Origin: Candidatus Methanoperedens sp.
GTDB lineage: Archaea > Halobacteriota > Methanosarcinia > Methanosarcinales > Methanoperedenaceae
DNA length: 38,525 bases
Direction of reading: 5' to 3'
Assembly (NCBI GenBank): GCA_027460585.1
Contig: JAPZAP010000055.1
Location: forward strand, 1-38,525
Of the stretch, positions 273-32,277 are shown one piece after another. The notes beneath the pieces were generated by a model, which saw only the letters and a list, made by a program, of their open reading frames with translations, searched no databases and was not told the origin of the DNA. Numbering within the stretch: the first letter of the stretch is position 1; each line of letters starts with the position of its first letter. The translations under genes were made by a program, and so were the position numbers.

Positions 273-1301
273 TTAATTATGATTTATGGCTCCTATTGAT
301 TTTCTCTTCCTTACCCATGTTACATATTTCAAATTTTTATAAATATCTTCGATGCTAAAATCATTATTCGTAGAAATATATCTTGGAGCTGGTTCTTTAG
401 CTGAATGTGTTGCTGGATATTTTCTTTTATAGTTAGTTATATATTTATCAGATTTTGTATCCAACCATTTGAGGCTTTCAGAAAATATTATTTTTGAAAG
501 ATATAATCTCTGAACAACTTTGCTGAATCTTAACAGTTGTTTGTTACTAATTTCAACTTGAGCCAAATATTCAGCCCAATATTCGATTCGTTTATCCTTG
601 AATAGATCATTCAGTTGTAAAAAGTCCTTTATTGAATTGACTATAAGTTTTTGAAGAATATCGCTGTTCAATTGAGAAGGATTTACAGGAATTAAGGAAA
701 TTCCTTTTGTAGGACACTTTGTTAATTTAAATTTATCTTTCTCAATAGTCTTGACATCGGTATAATGGTGTTCTCCTTGAAACTCAAATGCAATGTGAAA
801 ATCTTCAAACCATATATCAATCTCTAAATTGGATCCTGTTTTCGGATTTATTAGGAAATCTGGATATGCTGGGGACTCTTTATCAGTCTTAAATACTGTT
901 GAAGTAATAAATAAATCTACATATGCATTTAGTAATGCTTCGCCATAAGAAGGACATTTTTTATCATAGCCGGTCGATATTTTATTTTCCACATATTTTA
1001 TAAGATATTCGTTCACAATTTTCACCTCACCATCGAAATCGTAACTTAAAGCATGTTTTTGCTTAATATCTTCTACAAAACCAAATATCAGCCTGGATAT
1101 AGTTGGTATACTTTTGATTGAATTCTCGGAAATATATTCCTTCCTCAGTAATTTTTGTATCTTTTTTGTCAAATTTTTAAATTTTTTGGTGAAATCTGAA
1201 TCATATTCTTGGTTGACTATTTTCTCTAAGTACTGTTTTTGTCTCTCTTTTATAGAGCTAAGTGACCTATATCTACTTATTTTATCCATGGGAAACATCA
1301 T
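273..1301 (-). CDS. PD-(D/E)XK-like (Vsr/DUF559-type) nuclease, 342 aa
   Basis: The name is not recognised, but the C-terminal half has the pattern of a restriction-endonuclease fold. A helix carries E121 (GEALL), followed by LEIDIW (D162), then AFEFQGEHHY with E173 and Q175, then a D/K-rich helix and CPTKGISLIPV (C196, G200). This order resembles Vsr-like and DUF559-like nucleases that cut nicked, mismatched or foreign DNA. The first 110 residues are Lys-rich and helical, perhaps DNA binding. The start is the first of two adjacent ATGs; no good Shine-Dalgarno is visible. It lies 62 nt downstream of the RNA ligase on the same strand, so it may be read from the CBS/ligase transcript. Its base composition is clearly more AT-rich than the upstream genes, suggesting later acquisition. 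Fold assignment is moderately secure; substrate is unknown. Confidence 0.7.
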   Translation of the reverse strand: MMFPMDKISRYRSLSSIKERQKQYLEKIVNQEYDSDFTKKFKNLTKKIQKLLRKEYISENSIKSIPTISRLIFGFVEDIKQKHALSYDFDGEVKIVNEYLIKYVENKISTGYDKKCPSYGEALLNAYVDLFITSTVFKTDKESPAYPDFLINPKTGSNLEIDIWFEDFHIAFEFQGEHHYTDVKTIEKDKFKLTKCPTKGISLIPVNPSQLNSDILQKLIVNSIKDFLQLNDLFKDKRIEYWAEYLAQVEISNKQLLRFSKVVQRLYLSKIIFSESLKWLDTKSDKYITNYKRKYPATHSAKEPAPRYISTNNDFSIEDIYKNLKYVTWVRKRKSIGAINHN

Positions 1302-1363: not shown

Positions 1364-2530
1364 TCAACTCCACATCTGGCCGCCAAGAATTGTCTGCGTC
1401 TTATCATTAGTGCTCTGGTGTATCTTTTTTATCCTTATAAGATATTCATCCCCGATTTTCTCAGGTGTCTCAAAAACAGCATCTATCCCCAGCAACCTCA
1501 AATATTCCTCAAATTCTGAAACAGTCGTCAGGTTTTTTACCCTTATTTGCACATTTTCAGCTATTAGTTCACCGGCTTTTTTCTTCCTGATTGTCGAAAT
1601 CATAGGCAAGATGATGCTTTCCCCCAGCTTCCGGCATCTTTTCCTTGCGCTTTCCTCATCCTCGTCCCATTCTACTGACTGGAATGCTTCCCTGCACACC
1701 CTTCCGAAGAAAAAATCACGCCCGAAATCATTATAGAATTCAAACGCATAACGAAGATCCTGGCAGTTGCTGAGGGAACTTGTATATTTGACCGCTGGAA
1801 TATTCATTTCCGGGTCTTTGATGACCACGCCTTCCCGCAATGTATTCCCGAAACTCTTTATGATTCCGGTTATTGCAGTGTGAACCTCTCCGACATCGAA
1901 TTCCCCGAAAAGATGCACTGACTTAATTCCATATTCATCCATAAGCTTTCGTCGTTCATTGACTGGCATGGGATTCCCTGTATTCTTTTCCCTGACATCA
2001 AACACAAAAAAATCAAGTGATTCTATATTATAGAACGTTTTTGGCACATAAGGGCTATCCGGTCCAACCATCTCGCCGCATAGCACAAGATCCGGATGGT
2101 CACGGAAAAAATCCCGCTTTATCAAATCATTTGCCTTCTCAGTCGTATAAGGACATATGAAACCGCCGCGCGTGATCGCCACAATTTCATCTTTAATGAG
2201 GGCGACCCTGACATTATAACCATTCATTTTTTCCTCAACCACAACTTTCTTGATGGAAGAAAAATGTTTAATAAGCGCTGGATACAGCATCAGGGTGCGT
2301 GAAATTTTTGGAAAACCCCTCACTACTTCTAACGGTTCAAGAAATACAGAAGTTCCCCCCTCCACTGAGGAAACGGGCTTATCAAACCTGAAAAGCTCGC
2401 GTTTCCCATGCACAAACTGCAGCGTCTTTCGTTTCAGGGCGCCGGATATGCTATGTTCGGGAATTCCAAGCAGCCCTGATAATTTTGCTATTTCTAATTT
2501 ATTCTCCAGTTCTGAGACATCACGTCTCAT
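1364..2530 (-). CDS. ATP-dependent RNA ligase, Rnl3 (Pab1020/MthRnl) family
   Basis: This is a 388-aa nucleotidyltransferase that seals or circularises RNA through ligase-AMP and RNA-adenylate intermediates. The motifs are in order: motif I KMNG with the nucleophile Lys101, TRGG near 121, CGEMVG (E153), FFVFDV (173-178), motif IV EGVVIKD (233-239) and motif V AVKYT with Lys248. A C-terminal helical domain follows, as in the archaeal homodimeric enzymes, and the length is typical. The ATG overlaps the stop of the upstream CBS gene (ATGA), so translation is coupled and the ligase is the terminal or penultimate gene of the CBS-array operon. Family members are known to circularise RNA in vitro; the native substrate in this lineage is not known. 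All catalytic residues are present. Confidence 0.93.
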   Translation of the reverse strand: MRRDVSELENKLEIAKLSGLLGIPEHSISGALKRKTLQFVHGKRELFRFDKPVSSVEGGTSVFLEPLEVVRGFPKISRTLMLYPALIKHFSSIKKVVVEEKMNGYNVRVALIKDEIVAITRGGFICPYTTEKANDLIKRDFFRDHPDLVLCGEMVGPDSPYVPKTFYNIESLDFFVFDVREKNTGNPMPVNERRKLMDEYGIKSVHLFGEFDVGEVHTAITGIIKSFGNTLREGVVIKDPEMNIPAVKYTSSLSNCQDLRYAFEFYNDFGRDFFFGRVCREAFQSVEWDEDEESARKRCRKLGESIILPMISTIRKKKAGELIAENVQIRVKNLTTVSEFEEYLRLLGIDAVFETPEKIGDEYLIRIKKIHQSTNDKTQTILGGQMWS

Positions 2531-3309
2531 CCTTTCGCCGCCAGATGCCTGATAATTCCCCTCCTGCTTACAACGCCAACAAGTTCATCTTTCAGGTTCA
2601 ACACAGGAACTCCACCAATATTTTCCCTAAGTAGAGTGGATATTATTTCCTTTAGTGGGGTATTTGTGCGGACTGATATCACATTCCGGGTCATTATGTC
2701 GCCCACAATGAGGTTCCGAATTCTCTCATCCTGCTGGTTATCCGGCACAAGATTCCTGAAATTCATCATAGCTTTTGCAACATCTCTCTCGGTAATAATT
2801 CCCACGACGTCATTATTTTCAACTATCGGCAACCTTCCGATATCGTTATCCAGAATTATCCGCCTGGCATGAGATACCCTGTCACCGGGGCTTACCGTGA
2901 TCGGTTCTTTCATGATCTGGGCCGCATATCCTTTGATATCTTTTACATTTTTTAATATTTCATTGGGCGTTACCCATCCCATGACTTTGTTGTTATCCAT
3001 TACTACAAGGACTCCACTTTTCCTGTCCAGCAAACCAATAGCGTCATCAAAGGACATATCCGGAAGTACCTTTGTGAAAAGGGCCGATGTTGCGGCTGCC
3101 ACATGCAAAGATGAAGCCGGGAGATTGGAAGTCTTCCATGTACCGAGTTTGTTGGCAATATTTCTCATTGTGATCATACCCAGAAGTTCACTTCCATTGA
3201 TCACCAGAAGCCTGCGTGTATCATGTTTATCCATCAAATCCATTGCATGCGAAATCGTATCTGATTTATGCACAGTAATAGGTTCACTCATAATGTTTTT
3301 TACGCTCAT
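2527..3309 (-). CDS. Four-CBS-domain protein (array gene 5)
   Basis: This 260-aa soluble protein consists of four CBS motifs, i.e. two Bateman modules: roughly residues 1-58, 75-125, 130-182 and 203-258. Each begins with an 'IM..PITV'-type strand. Ligand-contact signatures are GMITMRN (44-50), GWVTPNE (111-117), GIITERD (170-176) and GVVSRRG (245-251). CBS pairs usually bind AMP, ATP, SAM or related adenylates; no effector domain is fused here, so it should act on a partner. GGTG lies in the 9-nt spacer after the preceding CBS gene. Its stop overlaps the RNA ligase ATG, making the ligase the natural candidate partner (inference). Ligand unknown. Confidence 0.92.
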   Translation of the reverse strand: MSVKNIMSEPITVHKSDTISHAMDLMDKHDTRRLLVINGSELLGMITMRNIANKLGTWKTSNLPASSLHVAAATSALFTKVLPDMSFDDAIGLLDRKSGVLVVMDNNKVMGWVTPNEILKNVKDIKGYAAQIMKEPITVSPGDRVSHARRIILDNDIGRLPIVENNDVVGIITERDVAKAMMNFRNLVPDNQQDERIRNLIVGDIMTRNVISVRTNTPLKEIISTLLRENIGGVPVLNLKDELVGVVSRRGIIRHLAAKG

Positions 3310-3318
3310 GGTTTCACC

Positions 3319-4167
3319 TCACATATCTATAATAGTTTTGATTATATTCTCACCGGTCAAAATTCCCATAACCCCGTTGCCCGTCACAGCTACCCCGTTT
3401 ATTTTTTCTTTTACCATTAACCCCGCAGCATAGGTGGCAAGATCTTCATTATTAACTGTAACTATCGGGCATGACATTATGTCTTCTGCGACGAGTGGCA
3501 CTTCGTTTATGTACCGGTTCTCTTTTCTTCCTGCATAGCTCTCCTTTCGCGTCATTTTTATTACTTTTTGAGGCAGGCCGCCTTTTTTGTCTTTCATCTC
3601 CGTAAAAGTGAGATTCGAATTAGTGATTATCCCCACGGGTTTATCATTGTCCTCAAAAACAATGGCCCTGTCTATTGAATTCTCCTGCAATTCATGTATA
3701 ATATGGCTTATCGTATGATGCCTGTGAACTGTCACAGCAGGTTCGATCTTAAGATCCTTGACTTTCATGTCAAGCTCCAATCCTGAAAAATACTTGATCA
3801 AATCCCATTTTGTGACAATACCTATTACATCATCTTTATTATTTACTACAGGCAGTCCCCCGATATTATTTTCAGTCATAAGTTCTGCCAGTTGGCGTGG
3901 TGTCGCATCCGGAAATATCGTTATCAGGCTCTCAGTCATAACCTTACTTACAGGTATATCATCTATGGGGCGTCTTCGCCACTGGGGTTCTGCCTGGTTA
4001 AGCCTACGTACGATATCTTTTTTTGTCACCATTCCAACAGGTTTATTGTTGTTGACAATTACAAGTCTCCCGATCTTATGGCGAAGCATCAGGTTCCTTG
4101 CTCTTGCCACTGTTTCATCAGGCGATACAATATAAACTGGTGCGCTCATTATATCTTTTATTTTCAT
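3319..4167 (-). CDS. Four-CBS-domain protein (array gene 4)
   Basis: This 282-aa protein has four CBS motifs: near residues 1-55 (GMVTKKD), 72-125 (GIVTKWD), 130-185 (GIITNSN) and 225-282 (GILTGEN). The linker between the third and fourth motifs is basic and about 35 residues long (KMTRKESYAGRKENR), unlike the other array members. The last two motifs have Asn in place of the usual terminal Asp, so ribose contacts may differ between modules. The upstream stop TGA is followed by GAGG and the ATG 9 nt later. No catalytic or DNA-binding domain is seen; a regulatory adenylate-binding subunit is the likely role. Confidence 0.92.
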   Translation of the reverse strand: MKIKDIMSAPVYIVSPDETVARARNLMLRHKIGRLVIVNNNKPVGMVTKKDIVRRLNQAEPQWRRRPIDDIPVSKVMTESLITIFPDATPRQLAELMTENNIGGLPVVNNKDDVIGIVTKWDLIKYFSGLELDMKVKDLKIEPAVTVHRHHTISHIIHELQENSIDRAIVFEDNDKPVGIITNSNLTFTEMKDKKGGLPQKVIKMTRKESYAGRKENRYINEVPLVAEDIMSCPIVTVNNEDLATYAAGLMVKEKINGVAVTGNGVMGILTGENIIKTIIDM

Positions 4168-4176
4168 GAAAACCTC

Positions 4177-5112
4177 TCAATCAGCGATTGCTCTTACAAA
4201 ATCACGTTCTGTTATGATGCCTCTCAATTCGCCATCTTCAAGCACGGGTAGAGAGCCGACATTCTTATCAAGCATCATACTTGCAGCTTCCCCAAGGTCA
4301 ACATCCGACCTTGTAAATATTAGATCCCTTTTTACAAGTAAGCTGACGGGAGCTTTGAAAACCTCAGCAGCATTTCCTGTGACAAGCCTGTCGAACATTT
4401 CGCCACTTCCCAGAAATCGCATTATATCCGAAGCCGTTACGATGCCTATCAGGACATCATCCCGCAAAATCGGAAGTCTCCTGAAACCGTTATTGATCAT
4501 GGACTTTGTGGCGGCTCCTATTGACATATCTGAGGGCGCAGTCACTACTTTTTTGCTCATGTATGCTTCGACGGTCTTACCTGTAACGATACCCGATAAT
4601 AGAAAGACAAAATCCATTTCGGAAACGATCCCTTTTATGGTTCCTTCACTATCCGTTATAGGGAGACCTCCGATATTTTCTTTCAACATCACGCTCAATG
4701 CATCTTTCAGGGAATCCTTAACGTTCATCGAGACCACATTTTCTTCCATGATCTCACTGATGCTCCCGTTCACCGCGGCAAGCAGGTTGCCTTTGAATTT
4801 GTTCCTGACGATAAGATTCCTTTTCCCGCCGCCAAGGAAATCTACAATATCCTGTGATGTAACGATCCCTTTGAGGTGATGTGTTCCGGCGTCTGTCACG
4901 GGAATTCTCCGGAATCCATGATCCAGCATGGCCCTGACCGCCCCTATCACCGGCATGGTGGGTGGAATAGTGATAACCTCACTTGAGGCCAGCGTCATTA
5001 TATCGCCGGGTCTTTCAGATATCCTGGATTTGAAATCCAGCGGCCCCATATTTCGCATATAACCTTTCCTGCCATGTTTTTCTATTTTAATATTACTTCC
5101 AGATAGATTCAT
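4177..5112 (-). CDS. Four-CBS-domain protein (array gene 3)
   Basis: At 311 aa this is the longest of the array. It has an N-terminal basic tail of about 35 residues before the first CBS motif. The four motifs are marked by GIVTSQD, GIVSEMD, GIVTASD and GIITERD. 'GFRRIPV' and 'GFRRLPI' in motifs 1 and 3, against 'NIGGLPI' and 'NVGSLPV' in motifs 2 and 4, suggest that a CBS pair was duplicated within the gene. The chosen ATG has AGGTG 4 nt upstream, inside the 9-nt spacer after the preceding stop; a second possible ATG is at residue 19 (MRNMGPL). Likely an adenylate-sensing subunit; ligand not determined. Confidence 0.92.
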   Translation of the reverse strand: MNLSGSNIKIEKHGRKGYMRNMGPLDFKSRISERPGDIMTLASSEVITIPPTMPVIGAVRAMLDHGFRRIPVTDAGTHHLKGIVTSQDIVDFLGGGKRNLIVRNKFKGNLLAAVNGSISEIMEENVVSMNVKDSLKDALSVMLKENIGGLPITDSEGTIKGIVSEMDFVFLLSGIVTGKTVEAYMSKKVVTAPSDMSIGAATKSMINNGFRRLPILRDDVLIGIVTASDIMRFLGSGEMFDRLVTGNAAEVFKAPVSLLVKRDLIFTRSDVDLGEAASMMLDKNVGSLPVLEDGELRGIITERDFVRAIAD

Positions 5113-5121
5113 AAAACACCT

Positions 5122-5895
5122 TCAGATGAATACTTTTATAATATCGTTCCTGTCGACTATACCCACAAGTTTCCCATCATTTGTCACTGAGATCCTGCCA
5201 ACATCAAGTTTCAGGAAAGCCTGTATCGCCTCAGCGATCGTGGATTCTGAGGGTAATGAATACGCTGGCGTGCTCATGACCTTCTCAACAGCCGGCGACA
5301 TGGTAGATTTTGTTCCCTGGTTGTCCTCCCTTTCGATTCTTGCATATCCGGCATTGATTATATTTCGCCGTGTTACCATACCTACAAGTTCCCCGTTTTT
5401 TACTATAGGAAATCCTGAAAAGCCGGTTTGTTTCATGTTCATCCAGGCTTTTGCTATGTTGTCCTTAGGAGAAAGTGTCTTGACATCGGTTGTCATTATT
5501 TCATGGAGCTTTTTGTGAGGTATTTTTTCAGGTTTCAGGTTCCTGAAGATATCAACTACGCTTAAGAGTCCCGCAAGCGTCATGTCCTGTCCCGATTTTA
5601 ATACAGGAACACGCCCCATATCAGCTTCGATCATTAGTTTTGCCGCTTCCATCATGTCCATTTCCGGATAGACAAATGGGAACTCTGATGTGAATCCCTG
5701 AACTGTTACGTTTGATTTTGTGGAATATATATTCAATAATTCTTTTTCCGTAAGGATTCCCACGACTCTTTTCTTTGCATCGACTACAGGCATGGTTCGA
5801 AAATGTCTGTCACGCATTACCTGGCGCGCTTGTGTCATAAAGTCCGAATCCTGTAAAAATACAGGATTTTTAGTCATTACGTCTTTTACTTTCAT
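5122..5895 (-). CDS. Four-CBS-domain protein (array gene 2)
   Basis: This 257-aa protein has four CBS motifs: MTKNPVFL.. with GILTEKE; a more diverged second motif with GLLSVVD; 'IMTTDVKTL' with GMVTRRN; and 'VMSTPAYSL' with GIVDRND. No other domain is visible. GGAG lies 6 nt before the ATG. A TTTATAAAAGG element overlaps the ribosome site, so an internal promoter is possible in the 64-nt gap after array gene 1. The next gene follows after 9 nt. The role is probably ligand-dependent regulation of a partner protein. Confidence 0.92.
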   Translation of the reverse strand: MKVKDVMTKNPVFLQDSDFMTQARQVMRDRHFRTMPVVDAKKRVVGILTEKELLNIYSTKSNVTVQGFTSEFPFVYPEMDMMEAAKLMIEADMGRVPVLKSGQDMTLAGLLSVVDIFRNLKPEKIPHKKLHEIMTTDVKTLSPKDNIAKAWMNMKQTGFSGFPIVKNGELVGMVTRRNIINAGYARIEREDNQGTKSTMSPAVEKVMSTPAYSLPSESTIAEAIQAFLKLDVGRISVTNDGKLVGIVDRNDIIKVFI

Positions 5896-5959
5896 ATTAT
5901 ACTCCTTTTATAAATGTATAATTATGTTGTTTGTCCAAAATCCGTTAAAAGCTACCGTT

Positions 5960-6508
5960 TTAAATTTCCCTGCAGCTTTCGCAGAGAAGTTTTCCTTCAA
6001 CTAATTGCAGATTGTCAGAAATATATCCGCAATCCTCGCATATCCCTTTAACAGCCTGACCTGGCGTTTCCATCGAAAACAACTTTTCCCGATGCATCTT
6101 TATGAGATCAGAAAATATATTGCCCATTTCCGATGATATCGCAATTAAGTCAGTATCCGTAACTATACCTGCAAGTTTTCCTTTTTCCACGACCGGAAGC
6201 CGCCGTATTTCAAGCTTCAACATTTTATGCATTGTATCTGTTACGTCCTCTGTGGAAGGTACGGTTAAAAGAGGAGAGGTCATTAATTCCTTAATGGAGA
6301 TTTCTTCGGGTTTTAAATTCCTGGAAACAATCTTCCTGACAATATCCCGTTCTGTTACTATTCCAACGGGCTGGTTCTTATCTGTGACAATAACACTTCC
6401 CACTTTATATGTTAGCATTTTCTTTGCTAATTTCTGGACATCGCTTTTGATGTCTATTGTCACAACGTCACGGGTCATAATTTCTTTGACCGTTATGTTA
6501 AGTTCCAT
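5960..6508 (-). CDS. CBS-pair protein with C-terminal zinc ribbon (array gene 1)
   Basis: This is the first gene of the array, 182 aa from the chosen start. One CBS pair carries GIVTERD and GIVTDTD and is followed by a helix. The C-terminal rubredoxin-like or zinc-ribbon knuckle pair is CEDC ... CESC, about 20 residues apart. An upstream extension to 6598 is possible in the same frame, but GGAGG sits 6 nt before the ATG at 6508 and homologous CBS proteins begin at this MELNITVKEIM point, so the shorter form is preferred. The zinc ribbon gives this member a probable nucleic-acid or protein contact that the other four lack. Confidence 0.9.
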   Translation of the reverse strand: MELNITVKEIMTRDVVTIDIKSDVQKLAKKMLTYKVGSVIVTDKNQPVGIVTERDIVRKIVSRNLKPEEISIKELMTSPLLTVPSTEDVTDTMHKMLKLEIRRLPVVEKGKLAGIVTDTDLIAISSEMGNIFSDLIKMHREKLFSMETPGQAVKGICEDCGYISDNLQLVEGKLLCESCREI

Positions 6509-9866: not shown

Positions 9867-11873
9867 TTATTCCTTCACCCTCGACCCGCCCGGCGGAAGT
9901 AACATCGCTATCTTATCTGGCGATGCGACATTCTTTATTAGTTTCTTGTCCTCGAATTTATCATTCATTATCCTGTGTATTTTCTTTGAGAGGTCGTTCT
10001 GGTTGAACTCACCCGGCTCGACCTCGATAACGAATTTCGCTTTCTTCCTTACCATACCCACAGGGCCACCGATCAACCTTTTCTCTTCACCCAGCTCAAA
10101 ACCCAGGGCTGCGCCAAGAATCACATCTTTGAAATAATTACGTTTACCCCTAATCACAAAAGCGCCTTTCCCGACATACTCCCCTGTCTCCGGTGTCTTT
10201 GACACCTGGTTGGGGAGCACCCAGTAGGCGTCCCCGCTTGCCTGTCCCGATTTCCAGATGCTTGAATATGAAACCGTGAATTCTGCTGCCTCAAGGAGCG
10301 TGGATTCGGGGACAACTTTTCCCTCTGTTTTTATCATAACTGCAGGTGAGCCTGATACATGCGCATGGAAGAAAATATCCTGTTTCTGGAGGTATTTTTT
10401 TACTAAGTCCTCGTTACTTTGCGCATCCCTTCCCCCGATAACAAGAAACCCGTCTGATGAGATAAACCACCTGAACTGTTCGTACCATTTTGGTTTTGAT
10501 TTGAGTATTTTCTTCTTCTGCGGGGGAGCTTCTTTTTTCTCAGTTAATTTTTTTGTCTCCTCAATTGCAATAACTGCACCTTTTATTTTTCCTGATAATT
10601 TTTTCGACCTGTCGTAATAGACCTGGGAGTTCTGGGTCACTGGCAGCCTTATATCCAGTTCCAACTCTGTGTTATCGAGGAGCACGTTGATCAGGCCTTT
10701 GCCAGGGTTAATGGATTTTATCAATTTTGCTTCCGGCATCTCGGAGCTTTTCAGGATGTTCTTGATATCATCCCATGAATAACCTTTGTCCCTTGCGTTA
10801 TTTATCGCTTTTAATATCCCGTCGCATGTCTGGTAATGCGCATAGATCAACTCACCTTTATGAACAAGCTTTTGCTCTTCATCCCTGAACTTTGAGAGCG
10901 CAAGCACCTGTTTCTGGAGACGGTATTCATATAATCCGGTTTTTTCGTCCTTCTTCGTTTCCGCCTCTTTTACCGCTTCATTTTTCTTTTTTGCCTCGCT
11001 ACTGAAATATTCATCAAGAGCCTCGTTGAATGTAGCAAAAAAGATTTTTTCATTATTCTCATTCTTTGAAACTCCAATTATATCTAAACGTTTGAACGGA
11101 GTTTCAAACTGGGAAAGGGGGAAAGGAAGCACATCCATCTTAATCCCGTTTTTTGTGATAATATGCGGTTTTAATTCAGTGCTCAGCGGTTTAAATACCT
11201 CAGCAAGTGCATTCCGGATCGGGACAGGGTCAATTAGATCCCTGGCAGGCGTACTTTTTTCAATTCCAGCGCGCAGGCAAACTTCTTCGGCATACTGGCC
11301 CCCCATGTTCATTTTTGTCGCCATTGTTCTCACAATGTCAGAATCAGAGTGTGCAAACATTTCCTTTAATTCCTCTGCGGTGGTTGTGATCGGACTTAAC
11401 TGCGCCGCTGGAAGCTCATATTGCTCGCCGCCTCTTACTTTCCTGTCCCTGAAGCTTATGGACTTTAAGGGGAGGATTATCCGCTTTTCCGAATCCAGCA
11501 GGACGATATTTCCCCTGGAGAATAATTCGACCAGAAGCATTGTTTTGTCCTCTCCACGCTGGATATGAAGTATGATTATCCTGTCAAAATCATACTGCAC
11601 AATGTCTGTTATCCTGCCTCCGGTAAGGTGTTTGCGCAAAAGCATGGGGAAAGCCGGCGGCAATTTCTGGGCTGTCTCGGGGTTTTTTGTGAGATGGAAG
11701 CGTTTTCCCGCTTCAATTATAAGATTTGTTCTTCCCTCTTTGAAAATATGCAGCCCGATTCTTATCTCATCCGGCGAATGCTGGTATATCTTCGTAATTT
11801 TGGAATCGAGAAGTCTGGGATGCAATTCCCTTACCAGTGCCGCAACGTCCACGCTTGACATTTCCTGTTTCAT
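9867..11873 (-). CDS. rqcH: Ribosome quality control protein RqcH/NEMF (NFACT family)
   Basis: This 668-aa protein is the archaeal homologue of bacterial RqcH and eukaryotic NEMF/Rqc2. These bind 50S subunits with stalled peptidyl-tRNA and add C-terminal tails. The NFACT-N domain spans about 1-250 (VDVAALVRELHPRLLDSKI, NLIIEAGKRFHLT, ..DRIIIL). A helix-hairpin-helix and coiled-coil middle covers about 290-430. The NFACT-R domain covers about 465-600 (FRWFISSDGFLVIGGRDAQ, FHAHVSGSPAVMIK, ASGDAYWVLPNQV, GAFVIRGKRNY). ATG 11873 or the ATG at residue 5 are both plausible starts. It is monocistronic or leads its transcript. Confidence 0.94.
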   Translation of the reverse strand: MKQEMSSVDVAALVRELHPRLLDSKITKIYQHSPDEIRIGLHIFKEGRTNLIIEAGKRFHLTKNPETAQKLPPAFPMLLRKHLTGGRITDIVQYDFDRIIILHIQRGEDKTMLLVELFSRGNIVLLDSEKRIILPLKSISFRDRKVRGGEQYELPAAQLSPITTTAEELKEMFAHSDSDIVRTMATKMNMGGQYAEEVCLRAGIEKSTPARDLIDPVPIRNALAEVFKPLSTELKPHIITKNGIKMDVLPFPLSQFETPFKRLDIIGVSKNENNEKIFFATFNEALDEYFSSEAKKKNEAVKEAETKKDEKTGLYEYRLQKQVLALSKFRDEEQKLVHKGELIYAHYQTCDGILKAINNARDKGYSWDDIKNILKSSEMPEAKLIKSINPGKGLINVLLDNTELELDIRLPVTQNSQVYYDRSKKLSGKIKGAVIAIEETKKLTEKKEAPPQKKKILKSKPKWYEQFRWFISSDGFLVIGGRDAQSNEDLVKKYLQKQDIFFHAHVSGSPAVMIKTEGKVVPESTLLEAAEFTVSYSSIWKSGQASGDAYWVLPNQVSKTPETGEYVGKGAFVIRGKRNYFKDVILGAALGFELGEEKRLIGGPVGMVRKKAKFVIEVEPGEFNQNDLSKKIHRIMNDKFEDKKLIKNVASPDKIAMLLPPGGSRVKE

Positions 11874-30568: not shown

Positions 30569-31396
30569 ATGAACGCTACCATGACAGACCACCCCAAAGT
30601 TAAAAATTACATGACACAGGAAGTAGATACGGTCTCACCGGAAAATACTGTAAAGGATGTTATAGATCTTATTAAAAGGACAGGACATGATGGTTTTCCT
30701 GTAGTTGAATACGGAAAGGTCACAGGATACGTATCAGCGTCGGGTTTGCTGGAAAAAGCGCTGGATGAAAAGATATCCCATGTGATGAGCAGGGATGTTT
30801 TAGTAGCGGATACTGAAATGGAAATGAGCGATGTGGCACGCGTCATATTCAGGTCAGGCAAATCAAAATTGCCTGTCGTGGATAACAGCGGACATTTGCG
30901 AGGTATTATTACAAATTCTGATGTTATTCGATCCCATATTGAGAGGACAAGCCCACAAAAAGTCTGGACGCTTAAAAAGACACTTGAAACCATCCACAAT
31001 ATCCATGTAGATGTGATCCGGGAAACAGTAAATATTGATGAGCTCGTTCCTACGCAACCCAAGGTCTATGCGGATGAACTCGATGGAAGGATATACGAGT
31101 TAAAGAAAGGTCTTGCTGAACCAATAGTTGTTATCAGGAAAAGTAATAGATTAATTCTTGTAGATGGCCATCACAGGGTAATTGCTGCCAGGAAACTCGG
31201 TATCAAAAGTATGGATGCCTATGTCATACCCATTGGTGATGAGATACATCTTGGCATGGAAAAAACCGCTAAATCATCAGGGCTTCATACTATGTCGGAT
31301 GTCAGGATTCTTGACTATGCCAGACATCCTCTGGTTGAAATCACAAAAAGACTTAAAAAAGATGATGAGAACGGATTGACAAATGTTGGGCAATAA
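30569..31396 (+). CDS. CBS pair fused to ParB/Srx-like domain (SerK-like)
   Basis: This 275-aa protein has two CBS motifs at residues 8-65 and 67-125 (GYVSASG, GIITNSD), a helical linker to about 150, and a ParB-superfamily domain at about 152-235. The key motif is LVDGHHRVIAARKLG with DGHHR at 199-203, plus EPIVVIRKSNRLI before it. The ParB fold includes CTP-binding ParB, sulfiredoxin and the ADP-dependent free serine kinase SerK of archaea. With no HTH domain present, a small-molecule kinase controlled by adenylate binding at the CBS pair is more likely than DNA partition (inference). It converges with the HTH-CBS gene, 5 nt apart. Confidence 0.85.
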   Translation: MNATMTDHPKVKNYMTQEVDTVSPENTVKDVIDLIKRTGHDGFPVVEYGKVTGYVSASGLLEKALDEKISHVMSRDVLVADTEMEMSDVARVIFRSGKSKLPVVDNSGHLRGIITNSDVIRSHIERTSPQKVWTLKKTLETIHNIHVDVIRETVNIDELVPTQPKVYADELDGRIYELKKGLAEPIVVIRKSNRLILVDGHHRVIAARKLGIKSMDAYVIPIGDEIHLGMEKTAKSSGLHTMSDVRILDYARHPLVEITKRLKKDDENGLTNVGQ

Positions 31397-31401
31397 GACA
31401 T

Positions 31402-32277
31402 TCAATATACAGCAAGTTTGGCGAGTATGTCGGTTTTTGAGATGAGCCCAACAAGTTCCCCGTTGACTTTTACCATCAGCCTTCCAACTTTTTCTTTATT
31501 AAATATCCTGACAACTTCGTAAAGTGGCATATCCCCATCAATTGAGATAATGTCCTTTGTCATGATATCTTTTATCTTAAGGCTTGTTTTCCCTTCTGCA
31601 AGCGTTTTTCCGATATCGGTCAGGGTTACTATTCCAACGATACCGTCCTTGTCTTTCACGGGTGCGCCGTGAATGTTATTGGTAACAAGGATCCTTGAAG
31701 CTTCCTGGATCGTGGCTGTTGCGGGGATCATTATGGGATTTTCATGGATATAATTCTTAACGGGTTTTTTGGGAAGTGATACCATTTCCTGTATTACAAA
31801 TAATATTGTATTTTGGGTATCATCCCTTCCGATCACGGAACCCCTGATCACCAACCTGTTTACCGGAGTTGGTCCTATTATAAGGTTGTCTCCGACATCG
31901 AATTTTCTTATATCACCAATGACATGAACAGTTGCATTGCATAGATCGGGATGCCGTACAGTGGTAAAACTTATCTCTGCTACAGTGGCATTTTCTATCA
32001 ATTCATCATTCCTTTTTAAAGGAACATTCATCTCTTTATCCATATCTGATAAGCTCAAAGCTCGATATGTAGCGCCAGTGGCTTTGTATCCCCCTTTTGG
32101 TCCGGGTACCCCTTCTACCAACCCAAGGGCTTTTAATGATTGCATCTGGTTCCTGACAGTACCCGGATTTCTTTCAATTATCTCAGCTATATCTTCCCCT
32201 TTGATCGCGTGTTTTCTTGTCCTGTATAAATTAATTAATGCCGTTAGGATTTCTTTTTGTATTGGTGTAAGTTCCAT
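31402..32277 (-). CDS. Transcription regulator with winged helix and CBS pair
   Basis: The 291-aa protein begins with a winged helix-turn-helix at 1-70 (LTPIQKEILTALINLYRTRKHAIKG, RNPGTVRNQMQSLKALGLV). A beta-rich middle domain follows at about 90-170. Two C-terminal CBS motifs lie at 175-230 and 235-291 (GIVTLTD, GLISKTD). Archaeal proteins of this layout are thought to sense adenylates or SAM and act as repressors; the target is unknown. glnK/amt lie upstream on the same strand but are separated by about 250 nt. A 17-bp perfect palindrome lies 113 nt upstream of its ATG. GGGAG is 12 nt from the ATG, slightly far. Confidence 0.9.
   Translation of the reverse strand: MELTPIQKEILTALINLYRTRKHAIKGEDIAEIIERNPGTVRNQMQSLKALGLVEGVPGPKGGYKATGATYRALSLSDMDKEMNVPLKRNDELIENATVAEISFTTVRHPDLCNATVHVIGDIRKFDVGDNLIIGPTPVNRLVIRGSVIGRDDTQNTILFVIQEMVSLPKKPVKNYIHENPIMIPATATIQEASRILVTNNIHGAPVKDKDGIVGIVTLTDIGKTLAEGKTSLKIKDIMTKDIISIDGDMPLYEVVRIFNKEKVGRLMVKVNGELVGLISKTDILAKLAVY

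What the first reader, a model, noticed from the sequence alone, without database searches (positions are those of the whole stretch)
1364..6508. Polycistron of five CBS-domain genes feeding an RNA ligase
Seen: five consecutive minus-strand genes made almost solely of CBS motifs (18 motifs in all), then an Rnl3-type RNA ligase whose ATG overlaps the last CBS stop. Known: CBS pairs bind AMP/ATP/SAM; Rnl3 uses ATP and makes ligase-AMP. Inference: the array is a multi-channel adenylate sensor controlling RNA repair or circularisation, a pathway I do not know to be described.
Basis: partly seen in the sequence, partly recalled or inferred. Interest (0 to 1): 0.72.

Follow-up and report, generated by a model that had tools for sequence, protein, structure and literature searches.

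The report
Ribosome-hibernation operon ending in RNA ligase
Five neighbouring genes in a methane-cycling archaeon encode relatives of proteins known from resting ribosomes, and the gene at their end encodes an RNA-joining enzyme, which hints that archaea may store ribosomes and look after RNA as one job.

Summary
In detail: five minus-strand CBS genes (2,4,4,4,4 motifs) run into an Rnl3 RNA ligase whose ATG overlaps the last CBS stop. The interpretation needs changing. Each four-CBS protein best matches, nearly full length, a different chain of three 2026 cryo-EM entries of the Methanosarcina acetivorans 70S ribosome (9ZNF, 9ZNG, 9ZNI; SriA-SriD), and the set fits the CM-5/4/1/2 cluster of proposed archaeal hibernation factors in print. 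So the array is a ribosome-hibernation operon, headed by a CBS-zinc-ribbon protein. What I did not find in print is the attached ligase. Of 80 fetched Rnl3 loci of the phylum, 70 have array genes upstream on the same strand, 41 in the full order; the window's flanking genes recur in 0 of 60 such loci. Against strict dependence: half of the SriC-positive genomes lack Rnl3, two GoM-Arc1 genomes keep the two apart, and 10 of 12 Rnl3 genomes without the array place Rnl3 beside the RNase HARP. Nucleotide-pocket aspartates are well kept at 9 of 18 motifs, so energy sensing is possible for some subunits. That Rnl3 maintains RNA of resting ribosomes is inferred, not shown.

The parts
5960..6508 (-). 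Head gene: CBS pair plus C-terminal Cys4 zinc-ribbon-like segment (Ta0289-like layout), 182 aa
   Evidence: Pfam CBS x2; Cys157, 160, 176, 179 invariant in 13 of 13 aligned rows; phmmer match to Ta0289 1pvm, E 6.1e-14
5122..5895 (-). SriA relative (CM-5-like), four CBS, 257 aa
4177..5112 (-). SriB relative (CM-4-like), four CBS, 311 aa
   Evidence: match to 9znf chain 5 over residues 17-308, E 1.2e-93; next MJ1225 (3kh5), E 1.8e-55
3319..4167 (-). SriC relative (CM-1-like), four CBS with a 40-residue insert between CBS3 and CBS4, 282 aa
2527..3309 (-). SriD relative (CM-2-like), four CBS, 260 aa
   Evidence: match to 9zng chain 7 over residues 1-255, E 9.7e-92, and 9zni chain 7, E 1.1e-91
1364..2530 (-). 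ATP-dependent RNA ligase Rnl3 (TIGR01209), 388 aa
   Evidence: TIGR01209 E 1.6e-119; best PDB match 5d1o, ATP-dependent RNA ligase, E 8.6e-100; active-site motif EEK[ML][ND]G in 157 of 160 ligases extracted from two partly overlapping locus sets
2527..2530 (-). ATGA overlap of the SriD-relative stop and the Rnl3 start
   Evidence: sequence read directly

Best explanation
This is the ribosome-hibernation (Sri / CBS-module) operon of a Methanoperedenaceae-like archaeon, with a CBS-zinc-ribbon protein at its head and the RNA ligase Rnl3 as its last gene, here overlapping the gene before it. The SriA-SriD relatives would bind idle ribosomes, perhaps as the pairs A/B and C/D. The head protein, SriB and the first CBS pair of SriC keep adenine-nucleotide pocket residues and could report energy state. 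Rnl3 would be made in the same state and use its RNA-joining activity to seal or circularise RNAs of the translation apparatus (rRNA breaks, C/D-box guide RNAs) while translation is off. Shown here: gene identities, layout, close relatedness to Sri chains, conservation of the linkage. Shown by others for M. acetivorans: structures of the 70S ribosome in complex with Sri proteins (PDB titles). Inferred: ribosome binding in this organism, co-regulation, nucleotide gating, and the ligase acting on ribosomal or guide RNA.
For: One-to-one, nearly full-length best matches of the four genes to ribosome-entry chains; entry titles read. Gene order head-SriA-SriB-SriC-SriD-Rnl3 in 41 of 80 unnamed loci (40 exact, plus L118 with one extra distant weak CBS hit) and in 54 of 80 named loci (the two sets overlap in part). 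In the 294-genome draw SriC and an over-cut-off Rnl3 co-occur in 59 genomes and are linked in 58; the other, G226, has its ligase on a 3.7-kb contig with 2.5 kb upstream and no array gene. None of eight genes flanking the window's array is found in 60 unnamed array loci with full flanks, against the ligase in 60 of 60. Pocket Asp in at least 90% of distinct relatives at 9 of 18 motifs. In T. kodakarensis an Rnl knockout repressed C/D-box RNA circularisation (abstract) and changed rRNA fragments, some near the sarcin-ricin loop (PMC9014305, section 19 read).
Against: The array occurs without Rnl3: 59 of 118 SriC-positive genomes have no over-cut-off Rnl3, with complete arrays lacking it in L221, L228, L233, L236 and L239. 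Two GoM-Arc1 genomes hold an SriB relative away from Rnl3. The Rnl3 tree fits a single origin of the linkage, so vertical inheritance explains much of the count. Among Methanoperedens-like named loci the window's ribH and ilvC flanks are kept in 4 of 9, so nearby genes persist too at short range. The A/B pairing is only partly mirrored in gene loss: 12 loci lack both SriA and SriB, but f7 loci, L099 and L136 keep SriB without SriA, and three of the 12 genomes have SriB elsewhere. Rnl3 and the head gene have no chain of their own in the Sri entries by sequence search. In Methanosarcina-like loci the SriD-Rnl3 gap is 1.1-4.3 kb. No expression or binding data for this organism.
Confidence: 0.63

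Rival explanations
1. One reading: the CBS proteins are adenylate sensors whose main target is the ligase; they bind Rnl3 and set its activity by the AMP/ATP ratio.
For: Linkage in 70 of 80 loci. All 13 fetched f7 loci (unnamed family; Archaeoglobi is my guess) keep just the head gene and SriB next to Rnl3, and in these 13 rows the two proteins keep the pocket Asp at 5 of 6 motifs. SriB is the closest of the five to MJ1225, titled a putative gamma-AMPK homologue.
Against: All four large CBS proteins have close relatives in ribosome entries; the array is kept without the ligase in many genomes; no Rnl3 chain in the Sri entries by sequence search.
Confidence: 0.12
2. Neighbours by inheritance: Rnl3 joined the operon once and stayed because operons persist; it may share expression but no function with the Sri proteins.
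For: Single-origin pattern on the tree; Rnl3 is absent or elsewhere in many genomes with the array intact.
Against: Outside the window's own family the block is kept while the window's flanks are not (0 of 60 unnamed and 0 of 27 other named loci), at Rnl3 identities of 45-58% to the window in the 11 array-linked rows; overlaps of 4 bases with the gene before Rnl3 recur.
Confidence: 0.25
3. Rnl3's true partner is the RNase HARP throughout, and the CBS linkage is incidental (can hold together with the other explanations in part).
For: HARP (TIGR03875) is over cut-off in 121 of 294 genomes against Rnl3 in 119 of 294. In 10 of the 12 Rnl3 genomes of f11, f16, f21 and f27, where no array was found, HARP lies within 3 kb of Rnl3 (coordinates compared by eye). 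The pairing is in print (PMC12153264, passages).
Against: No other Rnl3 genome in those listings has HARP within 3 kb on the same contig (nearest 9.8 kb, G092; by eye), while the CBS linkage is near-constant there.
Confidence: 0.2

Closest known systems
SriA, SriB, SriC, SriD of Methanosarcina acetivorans (PDB 9ZNF, 9ZNG, 9ZNI; titles and sequence matches seen, no paper found)
   Same: Four four-CBS proteins with one-to-one, nearly full-length matches; same letter order as gene order if chain 4 is SriA and chain 5 SriB
   Different: The titles name no RNA ligase and no CBS-zinc-ribbon protein; ribosome binding in Methanoperedenaceae untested
CM-5/4/1/2 cluster of the HibA paper (PMC13324472, passages)
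   Same: Clustered four-CBS modules proposed as hibernation factors; CM-1 and CM-4 reported from dormant M. acetivorans ribosomes
   Different: The text has no occurrence of 'RNA ligase'; my mapping of the genes to CM numbers is inferred
Dri of Pyrobaculum calidifontis (PDB 9E6Q, 9E7F)
   Different: Dri is one fused protein; the SriA relative's weak sequence match lies in the C-terminal half and the SriC model fits both halves about equally
Rnl3 ligases (5D1O; P. abyssi PAB1020, 2VUG)
   Same: Family match along most of the protein, active-site Lys motif, Lig_C domain
   Different: Two Rnl3 papers that I opened have no hit for 'CBS' (PMC9014305; PMC12153264)
HARP-Rnl3 pairing (PMC12153264, passages)
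   Same: Genome-context link of Rnl3 to another RNA gene
   Different: HARP lies on another contig in the window's genome (C68)
Ta0289-type CBS-zinc-ribbon proteins (1PVM, 2QH1, 3GHD; family literature recalled)
   Same: CBS pair plus C-terminal Cys4 segment
   Different: Here the first gene of the Sri operon

Membership tests
Sri / CM ribosome-hibernation factors | Four tandem CBS motifs | tested here: met
   four stretches in each of four genes; models
Sri / CM ribosome-hibernation factors | Close, nearly full-length match of each gene to a distinct Sri chain | tested here: met
   titles
Sri / CM ribosome-hibernation factors | Long insert between CBS3 and CBS4, as described for HibA and Dri | tested here: inconclusive
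   SriC relative: 40 residues (187-226; unit limits) with conserved basic positions. The other three have about 19-25 residues there
Sri / CM ribosome-hibernation factors | Clustered genes in fixed order | tested here: met
Sri / CM ribosome-hibernation factors | Binding to dormant ribosomes in this organism | not testable with these tools
   needs ribosome purification
Rnl3 RNA ligase | TIGR01209 above curated cut-off and catalytic Lys motif | tested here: met
   399 against 136.9 bits; EEKMNG in the protein
Rnl3 RNA ligase | ATP-dependent ligation and circularisation activity | not testable with these tools
   assay needed
Adenylate-sensing CBS proteins (AMPK-gamma-like) | [ST]xxD pocket motif (recalled) in the CBS units | tested here: inconclusive
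   Asp in at least 90% of distinct relatives at 9 of 18 motifs; SriD keeps one of four
CBS-zinc-ribbon (Ta0289-type) proteins | CBS pair plus four C-terminal cysteines | tested here: met
   13 of 13 rows; metal binding itself untested

The most novel reading that the evidence does not exclude
Rnl3 is the RNA-maintenance arm of archaeal ribosome hibernation: while Sri proteins hold idle ribosomes, Rnl3 reseals breaks in their rRNA (or keeps guide RNAs circular), gated by energy charge read by the CBS-zinc-ribbon protein and SriB, the minimal trio that f7 genomes (probably Archaeoglobi) keep at this locus.
Probability: 0.2. Interest if true: 0.82.

Novelty: new variant of a known kind. Interest (0 to 1): 0.5.

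Why it matters
To my knowledge the physiological job of Rnl3 is unsettled. A conserved operon with ribosome-hibernation factors gives a concrete setting to test it in: resting ribosomes. It also points to a fifth CBS protein at the head of the Sri operon that I found no paper on, and suggests that ribosome storage and RNA upkeep may be one programme in methane-cycling archaea.

Tried and rejected
Array as a chance pile-up of CBS motifs: rejected (order, strand and relatedness conserved). Array as a regulator peculiar to Rnl3: set aside, because it persists without the ligase. A replacement RNA ligase beside ligase-less arrays: of five neighbours on the SriD side that I scanned by Pfam (L221, L227, L228, L234, L239, out of 20 loci fetched), none is ligase-like (deoxyhypusine synthase twice, DUF7847, an aminotransferase, a PKD-repeat protein). 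Rfam at gathering scores: only a tRNA in the window. Promoter scan: a bacterial consensus, unsuited to archaea, not used. SriA was not searched across whole genomes. Other phyla: the single genome-contig scan kept the best 80 of 371 relatives, by title nearly all Methanosarcinales-type archaea, so Methanobacteriota, Methanococci and Thermococci were not surveyed. From memory, M. thermautotrophicus MTH1221 (ligase) lies beside MTH1222-1226 (CBS proteins); not tested, and a text search for such names found no paper. Literature: the listings of searches showed no title or abstract joining Rnl3 to CBS or hibernation genes; most listed papers were not opened, subscription papers and preprints are not held, and no paper on the Sri entries was found. 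A first motif pattern misplaced several pocket sites and was replaced by named positions.
Full report
What is there. The window carries, on the minus strand, genes of 182, 257, 311, 282 and 260 aa with 2, 4, 4, 4 and 4 CBS motifs, then a 388-aa RNA ligase. Gaps between the CBS genes are 64, 9, 9 and 9 bases, and the last CBS gene overlaps the ligase by ATGA. The genome search lists 37 CBS stretches in all, 18 of them here. The nearest named ligase loci are Candidatus Methanoperedenaceae and like records at 84% identity.

What the CBS genes are. Against the PDB chain sequences, each four-CBS protein has its best match, nearly full length, in a different chain of three entries: 9znf chain 4 (E 7.4e-69), 9znf chain 5 (1.2e-93), 9zni chain 6 (7.9e-79) and 9zng/9zni chain 7 (9.7e-92 and 1.1e-91). 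The entry titles, read through structure comparison of two AlphaFold2 models, are M. acetivorans 70S ribosome in complex with SriA and SriB (9ZNF), with SriC and SriD (9ZNI) and with SriD (9ZNG), released 28 January 2026. Chain 7 is SriD and chain 6 SriC by comparing titles; chain 4 as SriA and chain 5 as SriB is inferred. By fold alone the SriC model ranks other CBS proteins (2yzq, MJ1225, 3ddj) above 9zni_6; its 46% identity to 9zni_6 is what stands out.

The HibA paper (PMC13324472; passages only) describes six archaeal CBS-module families, a CM-5/4/1/2 cluster, CM-1 and CM-4 in dormant M. acetivorans ribosomes, and Dri as a CM-1/CM-5 fusion. My mapping of the window genes to CM-5, CM-4, CM-1 and CM-2 rests on gene order, on the HibA chain being the second-best match of the SriA relative (E 3.7e-19) and on the SriC relative matching residues 332-630 of Dri. 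It is an inference.

The head gene. It has a CBS pair and a C-terminal segment with four cysteines invariant in 13 of 13 aligned rows. It matches Ta0289. Its matches in the 9ZN entries are to the four Sri proteins at paralogue level, so by sequence it has no chain of its own there; nor has Rnl3.

How conserved the linkage is. In a draw of 294 genomes of the phylum, 119 have an over-cut-off Rnl3. I fetched 80 of the 118 other than the window's own. Seventy have array genes upstream on the ligase strand: 40 with exactly head-SriA-SriB-SriC-SriD, one more with the same plus a distant weak CBS hit (L118), 12 with head-SriC-SriD, 13 with head-SriB (all family f7; two of them with one more CBS hit further off), and four with one gene of the five not found. 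Ten have none: L091, a 3.7-kb contig with 2.5 kb upstream of the ligase, and nine loci of families f11, f16, f21 and f27. Of the 35 f7 genomes not fetched, 18 have printed coordinates in both, and in all 18 SriB lies next to Rnl3; for the other 17 one search lists an SriB match without printed coordinates. Among 80 named loci (which overlap the first set in part), 54 have the full order, 20 part of it and six the ligase alone; of those six, three have 2.5 kb or less upstream (L204, L206, L215) and three are GoM-Arc1 genomes (L171, L175, L176).

SriC and Rnl3 co-occur in 59 of the 294 genomes and are linked in 58; the other is G226, the genome of L091, where the question stays open. Among 60 unnamed array loci with full flanks, none of eight genes flanking the window's array is found, against the ligase in 60 (the CBS rows of that table are inflated by paralogue matches). 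Among nine Methanoperedens-like named loci, ribH and ilvC are kept in 4 and the cupredoxin-like gene in 1; in 27 other named loci none is kept.

Results against a strict link. SriC is in 118 of 294 genomes, and 59 of these lack an over-cut-off Rnl3; Rnl3 is in 60 of the 176 without SriC. So co-occurrence is weak (50% against 34%); it is the adjacency that is strong. Complete arrays without ligase were read in L221, L228, L233, L236 and L239. In L240 (G010) SriD is split and a short ligase remnant follows. In two of three GoM-Arc1 genomes an SriB relative (E 1e-131) lies away from Rnl3; the third has only weak CBS matches. The Rnl3 tree of 47 rows separates the HARP side from the array side by a long branch and needs three changes for the array label, which fits one origin plus losses. 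In Methanosarcina-like loci the gap between SriD and Rnl3 is 1.1-4.3 kb.

Gene loss and pairing. The pairs in the PDB titles (A with B, C with D) are echoed in 12 loci that lack SriA and SriB but keep SriC and SriD. They are not echoed in f7 loci, L099 and L136, which keep SriB without SriA at the locus. SriB was found elsewhere in three of the 12 genomes and not found in nine (E 1e-50); SriA was not searched genome-wide.

The other partner. HARP is over cut-off in 121 of 294 genomes, a pairing with Rnl3 already in print (PMC12153264, passages). In 10 of the 12 Rnl3 genomes of f11, f16, f21 and f27, where no array was found (nine by reading the locus, three), HARP lies within 3 kb of Rnl3; G284 (far) and G134 (another contig) are the exceptions (by eye). 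No other Rnl3 genome in those listings has HARP within 3 kb on the same contig; the nearest is 9.8 kb (G092). So in this phylum Rnl3 tends to sit with one of two partners.

Could the CBS proteins sense nucleotides? The pocket aspartate (a [ST]xxD motif, recalled) is kept in at least 90% of distinct relatives at 9 of 18 motifs: two in the head protein, two in SriA, two in SriB, two in SriC, one in SriD. In one of the SriA sites the S/T is mostly replaced (7 of 92). HibA's own CBS module bound adenylates but showed no clear effect of AMP or ATP on ribosome binding (passages). A sensing role is possible for some members and unproved.

What the ligase may do. In Thermococcus kodakarensis an Rnl knockout repressed circularisation of C/D-box RNAs (abstract) and showed different rRNA fragments, some near the sarcin-ricin loop; the authors suggest direct joining or an indirect effect (PMC9014305, section 19 read). 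In M. acetivorans ribosomes the 23S rRNA is circular, and the paper names EndA and RtcB as the enzymes of circularisation in model archaea (PMC12918454, abstract and passages), so Rnl3 is not needed to explain that circle. That Rnl3 acts on rRNA breaks or guide RNAs in the resting state is an inference from gene context and from another organism.

Verdict. The CBS array is a member of a known kind, a Sri/CM hibernation cluster. The conserved attachment of Rnl3 and of a CBS-zinc-ribbon protein is the part that I did not find in print (search listings).

Noticed in passing
L064, L065, L072, L089, L097 (Rnl3 genes): Rnl3 of five Methanococcoides-like genomes has an in-frame TAG; the three translated (L064, L089, L097) have it at one place before the active site, a pyrrolysine candidate.
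   Followed up: partly
window 273-1301 (-): A 342-aa gene downstream of the ligase without a Pfam match, not found in any of the 96 full-flank array loci compared.
   Followed up: partly
window 30569-31396 (+) and 31402-32277 (-): Two more CBS-pair genes side by side, one with an HrcA-like winged-helix domain.
   Followed up: no
G256:C9:272469-274259 and G100:C5:29549-31339: Second copies of SriC and SriB relatives lie in one 633-aa open frame, a Dri-like double-module fusion.
   Followed up: no
L228:4260-5687, L221:10313-11278, L234:9974-10984: OapB, OapC and a GTPase lie divergently upstream of the array in L228; deoxyhypusine synthase follows the ligase-less array in L221 and L234.
   Followed up: partly
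L074, L081, L102: The head CBS-zinc-ribbon gene is called at 388-389 aa, about twice the usual length.
   Followed up: no
L218: A record titled Candidatus Dojkabacteria carries the archaeal array with the same spacing as Methanosalsum L219, so the title or bin is probably wrong.
   Followed up: no
L240 (G010): A split SriD followed by a short Rnl3 remnant: an array losing the ligase, or an assembly error.
   Followed up: no
L067, L068, L071, L075, L076, L078, L079, L084, L088, L095, L098, L101: In the 12 loci without SriA and SriB, a stretch of about 0.7-0.8 kb remains between the head gene and SriC; what it holds was not examined.
   Followed up: no
window 9867-11873 (-): NFACT protein (NFACT_N and NFACT-R domains), a family linked to ribosome quality control (that link is recalled), 3.4 kb from the array.
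   Followed up: no
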